From: JBHIBR01 sp046759145 [NCBI: Nitrospinota bacterium]
Lineage (GTDB): Bacteria; UBA8248
Length of the DNA: 16,537 bases
NCBI GenBank assembly: GCA_046759145.1
Contig: JBHIBR010000003.1
Coordinates: 1-16,537, forward strand
Direction: 5' to 3'
Below are positions 14,297 through 16,537 of the stretch, piece after piece. Numbering within the stretch: the stretch's first letter is position 1; each line of letters opens with the position of its first letter. The notes beneath the pieces are model-generated. The model did no database searches. It saw only the letters and a list, made by a program, of their open reading frames with translations, and was not told the origin of the DNA. The translations under genes and the position numbers were made by a program.

Positions 14297-15343
14297 GTGC
14301 ATCCGACCCTCGGCGCCCGCGATAGCGAGATCCTCAGGGCCCTCATTTCCCATCACATCCGCACGGCGGAACCGGTGGGCTCGCGGGCCCTGAGCAAGTA
14401 CGCGCGCCTGAGCCTCAGCGCCGCCAGCATCCGCAACGTCATGGCCGACCTCGGGGAGAGGGGCTACCTCTCCCAGCCACACACCTCCGCGGGCCGGGTG
14501 CCCACCGACCTGGGCTACCGGGTGTATGTGGACTCTTTGATGGAGACCCATCAGCTCACCGAAGCCGAGTCCTGGGCCATCGAGAGGGCCTACGCTCCGC
14601 CCCCGGTGCGCCCGGAGGACCTCCTGGTCCTTTCCTCCCGCCTTCTCTCCCATTTGACCAACCAGGCGGGCCTGGTCCTGATTCCCAACCTCGCCCAGCG
14701 CCTGCTCCGGCACATGGAGTTCATCGCGGTGGGGCCCAGGCAGGTGCTGGCGTTGCTGGTGGCGGACCGCGGCCTCGTCCACAGCCGGACCCTGGCGGTG
14801 GAGGAAGAGATCCCCCAGGAGACGTTGGACCGCATCTCCCGCTACCTCAACGAGGAGTTCTCGGGAATAACCCTCCACGAGATCCGGCACCGGCTGGTGG
14901 AGGGGATGGGAGAGGACAAGCTCCGCTTCGACGCCCTCTTCTACAAGGCCATGGACCTCAGCTGCAGGGCGTTCGCAGAGGAGGAGAGCTCCAGCGAGGA
15001 GGTCTACGTAGAGGGTGCCTCCAGCGTCCTCGACCAGCCCGAGTTTGCCGAGGACGTGGAGAGGATGCGGGCCATCTTCCGCACCCTCGAGGACAAGAGC
15101 CGGCTCGTCCGGATCCTGGACCGCTGCATGGACTCCCGGGGAGTGTTGGTGGTCATCGGCTCCGAGAACCGGTCCGAAGACATGGAGGGCCTGAGCCTGG
15201 TGGCCCACAATTACTCCTGTGGAAACCGGGTGCTCGGCAGCGTGGGCATCGTGGGCCCCAAGCGCATGGAGTACCCCCGCATGGTCGCCCTGGTGGCCCA
15301 CACCGCAGGGGTCCTCAGCCAGGCCCTCTCGCGGCAGGCATGA
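14297..15343 (+). CDS. hrcA: Heat-inducible transcription repressor HrcA
   Basis: A 348-residue HrcA of normal length. It represses class I heat-shock operons by binding CIRCE-type operators, with the GroE chaperonin as usual folding partner. The N-terminal winged helix includes ILRALISHHIRTAEPVGSRA and the strongly conserved SAASIRNVMADLGERGYL and QPHTSAGRVPTDLGYR segments (about 48-80). The C-terminal part (about 100-340) is the GAF-like dimerisation domain, ending with GPKRMEYPRMVALV. GTG start at 14297 preceded by an AAAGGGGGG-type SD about 7 nt upstream. It heads the plus-strand cluster and is followed 12 nt later by grpE, so it presumably regulates itself and grpE through the inverted repeat at 14232-14249. 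Confidence 0.96.
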   Translation: MHPTLGARDSEILRALISHHIRTAEPVGSRALSKYARLSLSAASIRNVMADLGERGYLSQPHTSAGRVPTDLGYRVYVDSLMETHQLTEAESWAIERAYAPPPVRPEDLLVLSSRLLSHLTNQAGLVLIPNLAQRLLRHMEFIAVGPRQVLALLVADRGLVHSRTLAVEEEIPQETLDRISRYLNEEFSGITLHEIRHRLVEGMGEDKLRFDALFYKAMDLSCRAFAEEESSSEEVYVEGASSVLDQPEFAEDVERMRAIFRTLEDKSRLVRILDRCMDSRGVLVVIGSENRSEDMEGLSLVAHNYSCGNRVLGSVGIVGPKRMEYPRMVALVAHTAGVLSQALSRQA

Positions 15344-15355
15344 GGGTCCCCGAGA

Positions 15356-15925
15356 GTGTGTCCGGAGGACCCCGAGGGGACCGGCCCCGCACCAGCCCCG
15401 CGGGGGGGAAGTTCCCCGCCGGGCGATTCGCCTTCTGCGCCGGCGCCCCGGCCTGCTGCCGGGGAGGAGGGTAAACCCGCCCAGCCCGACGTCGATTACA
15501 GAGACCTCTACCTCCGCCTGCGGGCGGAGTTCGATAACTTCCGAAAACGGGAACACCGCGAGCGCGAGGCCTTCCGTCTTCAGGCCCACCGGGAACTTGT
15601 GGCCGCGCTGCTGCCCATCTTGGACGACCTGGAGCGAGCCGCCGCCCACATGGGGGCGGAGGAGGTGGGCGGGGTGGTCCGGGGTGTGGAGCTCATCGCC
15701 GCCTCCCTGCGCGAGCTCCTCCGCCGCCAGGGGCTGGAGCCCATCGCCGCCCTCGGCGAGAGCTTCGACCCGGAGCGCCACGAGGCCCTCCTCGCGGTCG
15801 AGAGCGCCGACCACCCCGACAACACCGTCATCGAGGAGCACCAGCGGGGCTACCTCCTCCGGGGGGAGGTGCTCCGGCCGGCAAGGGTGACGGTAGCCCG
15901 GTCCGTTCCCCAGGCCGAGGGGTGA
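15356..15925 (+). CDS. grpE: Nucleotide exchange factor GrpE
   Basis: A 189-residue GrpE, the ADP-release factor for DnaK. The first 40 residues are a disordered Pro/Gly/Ala/Glu region as in most GrpE proteins. The dimerising helix contains YLRLRAEFDNFRKR (about 48-61), followed by LLPILDDLERA, and the C-terminal beta domain contains FDPERHEALLAVE and GYLLRGEVLRPARVTVA. GTG start at 15356; a GAGGG that overlaps the hrcA stop codon serves as SD with 9-nt spacing. dnaK, which often follows, is not here: a small J-domain-like frame and rsmE come next, so DnaK must be encoded elsewhere. Confidence 0.95.
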   Translation: MCPEDPEGTGPAPAPRGGSSPPGDSPSAPAPRPAAGEEGKPAQPDVDYRDLYLRLRAEFDNFRKREHREREAFRLQAHRELVAALLPILDDLERAAAHMGAEEVGGVVRGVELIAASLRELLRRQGLEPIAALGESFDPERHEALLAVESADHPDNTVIEEHQRGYLLRGEVLRPARVTVARSVPQAEG

Positions 15926-15941
15926 GGGAAGCCTCCCCGGG

Positions 15942-16169
15942 GTGTCCGTGAAGCCGTCGGACTGTTCCGCCCTCCTGGGGCTATCACGGAGGGTCACTTC
16001 GGAGGAACTCCGCCGGGCCTGCCGGGGCGCCCCAACCCGGGGTCCCCAAGCGGCAGGCCGCTTGGGGACCCCAACGCGCGGGCGCGTTGGGGACCCTTGC
16101 CGGGGGCTCACCCTGCGCCACGATCCCGACAAAAGCCCGAGCGCGCCCGAGGCGGAGGGGGAGCCTTGA
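15942..16169 (+). CDS. Short, degenerate J-domain-like protein interrupted in frame by a palindromic element
   Basis: A 75-codon frame from GTG 15942, 16 nt after grpE, to a TGA that overlaps the rsmE start (TTGA). The beginning (CSALLGLSRRVTSEELRRAC) matches J-domain helix I and the start of helix II, and LTLRHDPDKSP matches the end of helix II and the loop. Between them lie 26 residues specified by the palindromic insertion. Without these the spacing fits a J-domain with no gaps. The key HPD tripeptide reads DPD, and helix III is missing, so stimulation of DnaK ATPase is unlikely. It may be a decaying remnant of a dnaJ-like gene kept open by chance or by coupling to rsmE; expression is plausible but function is doubtful. 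Confidence 0.55.
   Translation: MSVKPSDCSALLGLSRRVTSEELRRACRGAPTRGPQAAGRLGTPTRGRVGDPCRGLTLRHDPDKSPSAPEAEGEP
16020..16105 (+). repeat. 70-bp double-palindrome element with 8-bp direct repeats (putative palindromic mobile repeat)
   Basis: The core (16028-16097) holds two adjacent hairpins: arms GGGGTCCCCAAGCGGC (16039-16054) and its complement (16057-16072) with a 2-nt loop, and arms CCCCAACGCGC (16069-16079) and its complement (16082-16092), also with a 2-nt centre. The two share GGGGACCCC. The core is flanked by TGCCGGGG at 16020-16027 and 16098-16105, which looks like a target-site duplication. Element plus one repeat copy is 78 bp, an exact multiple of three, and contains no stop in the host frame. 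It inserts between the residues RAC-R and G-L-T-L of J-domain helix II. No transposase is present, so it would have been moved in trans. No second copy was seen in this window. Confidence 0.7.
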
Positions 16170-16522
16170 GACTCTTCTTCGTCGAGGAGGGCCAGATCTC
16201 AGGGGAGCGGGTCGAGATCGCCGGGTCGGAGGCGCGCCACATGGTCCGCGCACTCCGCATGGCTCCCGGCGAGCGCTGCCGCGTATCGGATGGGCGGGGG
16301 AGGGCGTACCTGGTGGAGCTCACCTCGGTGGGGCCACGCCGGGTAGAGGCGCGGGTGGAGGAAGAGCTCCCCGCCCCCGACCCGTCGCGCCGCCTGGCCC
16401 TCGGCCAGGGACTTCCCCGGGCGGCGAAGTTCGACCTCATCCTCCAGAAGGCGGCGGAGCTTGGGGCGGCCGAGGTCTATCCGCTCCACCTGGCCCGGTG
16501 CCTCGACCGCGGCACGGGCTAG
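16166..16522 (+). CDS. rsmE: 16S rRNA m3U1498 methyltransferase RsmE, N-terminal half, ended by an in-frame TAG
   Basis: RsmE methylates N3 of U1498 in 16S rRNA. The TTG at 16166 overlaps the TGA of the preceding frame and has GGAGGGGGAG just upstream, and the protein from there (RLFFVEEG, then ARHMVRALRMAPGE, LGQGLPRAAKFDLILQKAAELGAAEVYPL) is a normal RsmE N-terminus: PUA-like domain, then the beginning of the SPOUT domain. RsmE proteins have about 240 residues, but a TAG at 16520 ends this one after 118, before the AdoMet-binding knot. After the TAG the same frame reads GERAR, which fits the expected continuation, so a nonsense mutation or sequencing error is likelier than a true end. Only 15 nt remain in the window, so the rest cannot be judged. 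Confidence 0.8.
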   Translation: MRLFFVEEGQISGERVEIAGSEARHMVRALRMAPGERCRVSDGRGRAYLVELTSVGPRRVEARVEEELPAPDPSRRLALGQGLPRAAKFDLILQKAAELGAAEVYPLHLARCLDRGTG

Positions 16523-16537
16523 GGAGAGAGGGCGCGG

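What the first reader, a model, noticed from the sequence alone, without database searches (positions are those of the whole stretch)
16020..16105. In-frame palindromic mobile repeat inside a J-domain, with target-site duplication
Seen directly: two abutting hairpins (16-bp and 11-bp arms, each with a 2-nt centre) in a 70-bp core, flanked by 8-bp direct repeats TGCCGGGG. Removing 78 bp (core plus one repeat copy) restores a J-domain helix II whose spacing from the ELRRA segment to the DPDK loop matches the family exactly, with no gaps. Known comparison: Rickettsia palindromic elements and Wolbachia palindromic elements also insert in frame within coding genes and add peptide segments. Inference: this lineage carries its own family of small, transposase-less palindromic repeats that generate an 8-bp duplication and tolerate translation.
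Basis: partly seen in the sequence, partly recalled or inferred. Interest (0 to 1): 0.8.

Follow-up and report, generated by a model that had tools for sequence, protein, structure and literature searches.

The report
Hairpin insertion in a dnaJ remnant
A 70-base piece of DNA made of tandem hairpins has been inserted into the leftover start of a chaperone gene in an uncultured bacterium; the insertion itself looks real, but no sister copies could be found, so a mobile repeat family remains unproven.

Summary
A 70-bp core (16028-16097) of perfect hairpins is flanked by TGCCGGGG (16020-16027, 16098-16105). Removing 78 bp restores a J-domain: Pfam DnaJ rises from 12.1 to 24.7 bits, and of 3,841 in-frame deletion products the repeat-defined one scores best against 25 relatives' DnaJ. 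It is an insertion, not an ancestral peptide. Refined anatomy: two tandem 24-nt hairpin units, CCCCAA(5)NN(5)TTGGGG, period 25, plus a shortened third; the full units differ at three stem pairs, all compensated.

The host gene is a 49-codon dnaJ 5' remnant; HPD has become DPD (25 of 25 relatives keep HPD), so 'tolerates translation' is weak. No copy was found: 0 exact hairpin-1 matches in genome contigs, none convincing in 95 NC10 or 345 further genomes. Most likely: a MITE/REP-like non-autonomous palindromic element inserted with an 8-bp duplication into a gene that is now decayed.

The parts
15356..15925 (+). grpE (upstream neighbour)
   Evidence: Pfam GrpE 1.1e-38
15942..16169 (+). ORF holding the insertion: 5' remnant of dnaJ (75 codons with insert, 49 without), GTG start; stop overlaps the rsmE start (TTGA)
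   Evidence: dnaJ directly follows grpE in relatives
16020..16027 (.). left direct repeat TGCCGGGG
16028..16097 (.). inserted 70-bp core
16030..16042 (.). shortened hairpin unit CCCCAACCCGGGG
   Evidence: that it is a decayed third unit is inference
16044..16067 (.). hairpin unit 1, CCCCAAGCGGC-AG-GCCGCTTGGGG, perfect 11-bp stem (16 bp with neighbouring bases)
16069..16092 (.). hairpin unit 2, CCCCAACGCGC-GG-GCGCGTTGGGG, perfect 11-bp stem
16030..16039 (.). left subterminal inverted repeat CCCCAACCCG (9 of 10 with 16083-16092)
   Evidence: 31 of 2000 shuffles reach this, so weak
16083..16092 (.). right subterminal inverted repeat CGCGTTGGGG
16098..16105 (.). right direct repeat TGCCGGGG
16166..16522 (+). 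rsmE 5' part, TTG start; in-frame TAG 15 bases before the window's end
   Evidence: NCBIfam TIGR00046 7.2e-15

Best explanation
A small non-autonomous palindromic element, 70 bp, made of two full and one shortened tandem hairpin units (CCCCAA...TTGGGG, period 25), was inserted into the 5' end of dnaJ between grpE and rsmE and left an 8-bp target-site duplication. Shown: it is an insertion of 78 bp relative to DnaJ; its anatomy; the direct repeats. Inferred: a staggered cut made by a trans-acting transposase recognising the hairpins or the subterminal inverted repeats, as for MITE-like elements. The host gene is a dnaJ remnant, truncated after helix II with HPD lost, so the insertion most likely survives because it hit, or helped create, a dead gene; its stop-free reading follows from 79% G+C and a length divisible by three.
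For: Splicing out 78 bp raises Pfam DnaJ from 12.1 bits (E 0.21) to 24.7 bits (E 2.6e-5). Among 3,841 distinct in-frame, stop-free deletion products of the ORF (deletions of 0-159 bp), the best by an HMM of 25 relatives' DnaJ N-termini is exactly 78 bp starting anywhere in 16018-16029, i.e. the repeat-defined event: 29.2 bits against 16.6 intact and 26.9 for the runner-up. In relatives dnaJ follows the GrpE match by 12-209 bp in 31 locus records, of which four are places fetched twice. Hairpins beyond shuffles. Units 1 and 2 share 17 of 24 bases; three stem pairs differ on both sides and remain paired.
Against: No second copy was found in anything searched. No empty site in a near relative: closest full-length HrcA is 49%. 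Terminal inverted repeats are subterminal, imperfect, and reached by 31 of 2000 shuffles. No transposase is tied to it; the genome that would hold one could not be searched. The spliced domain still lies just under Pfam's curated cut-off (24.7 against 27.8 bits).
Confidence: 0.6

Rival explanations
1. REP-like cluster: tandem hairpin units of the kind moved by HUH/Y1 (RAYT) enzymes, which make no target duplications (recalled); the 8-bp repeats would then be chance or target homology.
For: Short hairpin units, 2-nt centres, tandem arrangement, variable upper stem over a constant base are REP-like; REP dimers with differing stems, and REPs inside genes, are described in PMC3733652 (passages). 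Hairpin centre and target share a 9-nt inverted match.
Against: Neither GTAG nor CGTC nor their complements occur in 16020-16105. Chance of the 8-bp repeats at the right place is about 0.1%. The 9-nt match is reached by 30 of 1500 random window stretches.
Confidence: 0.17
2. Not mobile: the palindromes arose in place by template switching or slippage between short repeats, with fold-back copying correcting the arms.
For: No other copy found in the collections searched. Tandem period of 25 and compensated stems could come from fold-back copying. The 9-nt inverted match between target and hairpin centre.
Against: No source for the core elsewhere in the window: longest exact match 13 bp. Units with the same base but different upper stems are not explained by copying one template (inference).
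Confidence: 0.18
3. The hairpins are a kept RNA structure between grpE and rsmE (attenuator, processing site or terminator).
For: Very stable as RNA, -59.1 kcal/mol, z -2.6. Single similar hairpins lie between genes on alphaproteobacterial conjugative plasmids, the best at E 4e-4.
Against: The one terminator-like site found in 15300-16537 is at 16136-16151 on the minus strand, not at the hairpins. No Rfam family reaches its gathering score in 15300-16537 (best P35, 29.2 against 70 bits, E 0.04). It sits inside the former J-domain frame, not between intact genes.
Confidence: 0.07
4. The 26 residues are an old, functional part of a lineage-specific J-like protein.
For: The frame is open through the insert and its stop overlaps the rsmE start.
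Against: 25 of 25 distinct relatives' rows lack it; direct repeats and palindromes are at DNA level; HPD is lost.
Confidence: 0.03

Closest known systems
Rickettsia palindromic elements (RPE); Wolbachia palindromic elements
   Same: Small palindromic DNA read in frame inside a protein-coding frame.
   Different: RPEs are 105-146 bp, in many genes including conserved working ones, TSD given as unknown (PMC2229807 passages). Here 70 bp, one copy known, 79% G+C, in a decayed gene, with 8-bp direct repeats. Wolbachia elements: recalled; only a reference title was seen.
YPAL/RU-2 of Yersinia
   Same: Not A+T-rich, internal inverted repeats, no TA ends, target duplications on insertion, some co-translated (PMC2229807 passages).
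   Different: About 168 bp, abundant; duplications of 3-26 bp; no sequence comparison was made.
REP / REPIN repeats (GTAG and CGTC super-families)
   Same: Short hairpin units, short loops, clusters, stems that vary with pairing kept, some inside genes (PMC3733652 passages).
   Different: No GTAG or CGTC tag; 8-bp direct repeats; whether a RAYT is present is unknown.
Double-hairpin elements of fungal mitochondria
   Same: Adjoining hairpins inserted in genes, not removed from transcripts (PMC2800124 passages).
   Different: Organellar; reported to lack flanking duplications, which this one has.
MITEs
   Same: Small, non-autonomous, duplicated target, inverted repeats; in-frame fusions are reported (PMC10969869 and PMC5896051 passages).
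   Different: Inverted repeats subterminal, 9 of 10 only; no parent IS known.

Membership tests
MITE | Target-site duplication | tested here: inconclusive
   Perfect 8-bp repeats at the insertion borders, which the J-domain fixes independently; no empty site in a near relative.
MITE | Terminal inverted repeats | tested here: inconclusive
   CCCCAACCCG/CGCGTTGGGG, 9 of 10, 2 and 5 nt inside the ends; 31 of 2000 shuffles as good.
MITE | Several copies in the genome | not testable with these tools
   Own genome not held; none convincing in 95 + 345 other genomes.
MITE | Ends shared with a transposase-bearing IS | not tested
   No IS end library at hand.
REP (GTAG/CGTC) | GTAG or CGTC tag at one end of the hairpin | tested here: not met
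   Neither motif nor its complement in 16020-16105.
REP (GTAG/CGTC) | RAYT gene flanked by the repeats | not testable with these tools
   Genome not held.
   In frame, but in a truncated dnaJ without HPD.
Rickettsia palindromic element | Sequence similarity to an RPE family | not tested
   No RPE sequence was compared.
DnaJ / J-domain | HPD motif | tested here: not met
   DPD; 25 of 25 distinct relatives' rows HPD.

The most novel reading that the evidence does not exclude
A lineage without close sequenced relatives carries a G+C-rich family of tandem 24-nt hairpin units whose upper stems are rewritten while staying perfectly paired, and which spreads as arrays with 8-bp target duplications, into genes as well as between them.
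Probability: 0.3. Interest if true: 0.55.

Novelty: new member of a known kind. Interest (0 to 1): 0.35.

Why it matters
If copies exist, this would add a G+C-rich palindromic repeat with an unusually clear insertion signature (protein-defined border plus 8-bp duplication) in a poorly sampled bacterial lineage, and the compensated stem changes between units would let one ask how such repeats keep their palindromes. As a single copy in a decayed gene it is a modest finding.

Tried and rejected
Own-genome search: no genome held. Exact hairpin 1 (centre free) in genome contigs: 0 (contigs under 3 kb are not held there). Three hairpin patterns in viral contigs: 0, 0, 0. BLAST of 86 bp in 95 NC10 genomes: all 95 'match' at E up to 10, best E 0.0017 over 25 bases; at most about 9 candidates a genome were scored and the list was cut; the 20 loci returned (L071-L090) were aligned and by eye none shows the two hairpins. 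345 genomes of the phylum of G004: 1 match at E up to 0.001 (L104, E 2e-4, 34 bases at 85%), which lies inside a 456-codon reading frame and is single in that genome. Covariance model made from the one element, entered twice: itself 103.6 bits; 2 of 95 NC10 genomes at E up to 0.01, one match each, 27 bits, hairpins of other sequence without CCCCAA...TTGGGG. Unit junction TTGGGGWCCCCAA: 1 of 95 and 14 of 345 genomes, never more than one place in a genome; the backwards control hits 4 of 95 and 47 of 345 (counted by hand).

Plasmid hits (6 records, 83-89% over 36-42 bases, best E 4e-4): five are single hairpins like one of the two units; the sixth (Indioceanicola) matches the left part without a hairpin. 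In two of them (L100, L103) a DUF736 gene lies downstream, in L101 (Haematobacter) a DUF2493 gene; the stretches of L099 and L102 carry no annotation. A follow-up with the Haematobacter hairpin found 7 places in 6 records, one record with two, all of genera I know as Alphaproteobacteria. I read this as a local plasmid structure, and its likeness to the window as probable convergence; the E-value of 4e-4 speaks somewhat against that. Phage hit: 23 bases, E 0.7. Rfam: nothing near threshold in 15300-16537. 'Open in all six frames' rejected as evidence: 1372 of 2000 shuffles are too. 9-nt inverted match of target and hairpin centre: 30 of 1500, not used. Paper search on such elements and Methylomirabilota: none of the 8 papers listed (of 6,302 holding two terms) holds that name; this proves no absence.

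Full report
What is there. Read directly, 16020-16105 is TGCCGGGG, a 70-bp core, TGCCGGGG. The core folds as single-stranded DNA into three adjoining hairpins that use nearly all of it (z -5.2; 0 of 200 shuffles as stable). They share four bases; the cleaner parse is two 24-nt units, CCCCAAGCGGC-AG-GCCGCTTGGGG (16044-16067) and CCCCAACGCGC-GG-GCGCGTTGGGG (16069-16092), one base apart, preceded by a 13-nt CCCCAACCCGGGG (16030-16042) that may be a unit that lost its top (inference). The units agree at 17 of 24 bases; of 11 stem pairs 3 differ, each on both sides, and all stay paired. Perfect 11-bp stems twice over with compensated differences point to something that keeps palindromes perfect (inference).

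Chance. In 60 shuffles of the window the longest perfect arm was 13 (observed 16); 0 of 2000 shuffles of the core reached 16, although the longest among them was 15; 0 of 2000 of the hairpin-2 stretch reached 11. Within the window 8-mers recur at a spacing of 60-99 in 64 of 657,980 position pairs. It is the only such structure in the window: the other inverted repeats with spacers up to 60 are 76-93% matched and lie inside long reading frames, and a model of the element finds, besides the element itself and its hairpin 1 read on the other strand (38.7 bits), nothing above 13.3 bits.

It is an insertion. The ORF 15942-16169 follows grpE. With the insert it scores 12.1 bits against Pfam DnaJ; without 78 bp, 24.7 bits (still just under Pfam's cut-off of 27.8, as the domain is truncated). 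In relatives dnaJ follows grpE: 31 locus records have it 12-209 bp beyond the end of the GrpE match, four of them places fetched twice; rows from Elusimicrobia and Bacillota, where it lies 1.9-2.3 kb further on, were left out. After dropping repeats and one extract that began with a stop codon (L096), 25 distinct N-termini made an HMM. Of 3,841 distinct stop-free products of deleting 0-159 bp (multiples of three) anywhere in the ORF, the best is the 78-bp deletion that the direct repeats define (29.2 bits; runner-up 26.9; intact 16.6). So protein homology and direct repeats give the same borders independently.

The host gene is dead or nearly so. The restored protein is VSVKPSDCSALLGLSRRVTSEELRRACRGLTLRHDPDKSPSAPEAEGEP: it ends near the start of helix III (helix names recalled), and its stop overlaps the TTG start of rsmE. 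H of HPD is D here and H in 25 of 25 rows; the two tyrosines near the N-terminus are C and S; a lysine and an alanine of helix II that are invariant in the 25 rows are R and T. The remaining 300-odd residues of DnaJ are gone (368 residues in the L001 reading frame). rsmE itself has an in-frame TAG 15 bases before the window's end, which may be an error at a contig end or further decay. So tolerance of translation cannot be claimed: a length divisible by three is a one-in-three event and freedom from stops is expected at this composition (1372 of 2000 shuffles).

Lineage and copies. No genome is held for the window. Full-length HrcA identity is at best 46% among 47 loci of genome contigs, 49% among 95 genomes of the phylum of G001, NC10 by the record title of L001 (94 of 95 with a match), 43% in 26 genomes of the class of G002 (25 with a match) and 45% in 118 genomes of the phylum of G004 (79 with a match); fragments are higher (59% over 29 residues in L047, 55% over 117 in G010, 59% over 71 in G231). 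The window therefore comes from a lineage distant from all of these, NC10 nearest by a small margin. One search used exact 8-residue patterns and could miss relatives. An empty site in a sister strain could not be sought. Copies: exact hairpin 1 with free centre, 0 in genome contigs; 0 in viral contigs for three patterns; in 95 NC10 genomes only short, mostly one-sided matches; in 345 further genomes one match inside a reading frame; covariance model, 2 of 95 genomes at 27 bits; unit junction below control level. In some searches the tool scored only part of the candidates in many genomes (for example 2 of 9, 53 of 160), so weak copies could be missed. Plasmid matches are mostly single hairpins on alphaproteobacterial plasmids, best E 4e-4.

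How it likely works. Most likely a non-autonomous element moved by an enzyme in trans with an 8-bp staggered cut (inference from the duplication); hairpins or the subterminal inverted repeats as recognition sites (inference). The REP/RAYT route fits the tandem hairpins but not the duplication, and the GTAG and CGTC tags are absent. In-place birth of the palindromes cannot be excluded as long as no second copy is known.

Comparison with print. From passages only: RPEs (105-146 bp, in frame in 19 reading frames, TSD unknown) and YPAL/RU-2 (not A+T-rich, internal inverted repeats, TSD 3-26 bp) in PMC2229807; GTAG/CGTC REPs in PMC3733652; prokaryotic MITEs and in-frame fusions in PMC10969869; mitochondrial double hairpins without flanking duplications in PMC2800124; Coxiella QMITE in-frame insertions in PMC5896051. 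Each trait of this element is thus known in kind; the combination here (two-unit hairpin array, G+C-rich, 8-bp duplication, protein-defined border) would be a new member if copies exist.

Verdict. Observation confirmed and sharpened; insertion well supported; mobile family unproven; the claim of tolerated in-frame expression weakened by the state of the host gene. Interest 0.35.

Noticed in passing
window 16166-16537: rsmE reads to LARCLDRGTG and then an in-frame TAG, after which the frame continues plausibly (GERAR); either an error at the contig end or a second broken gene beside the dnaJ remnant.
   Followed up: partly
window 15942-16169: dnaJ between grpE and rsmE is reduced to 49 native codons, its stop overlapping the rsmE start (TTGA); whether a full dnaJ exists elsewhere in this genome is unknown.
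   Followed up: partly
L099, L100, L101, L103 (about 601-637): Hairpins CCCCA...TGGGGACCCC outside annotated genes on plasmids of Rhizobiaceae and Haematobacter (upstream of DUF736 in L100 and L103, of DUF2493 in L101; L099 unannotated), of unknown role, alike to the window's units.
   Followed up: partly
window 16016-16024 and 16051-16059: GGCCTGCCG of the target is the reverse complement of the centre of hairpin 1; 30 of 1500 random window stretches do as well.
   Followed up: yes
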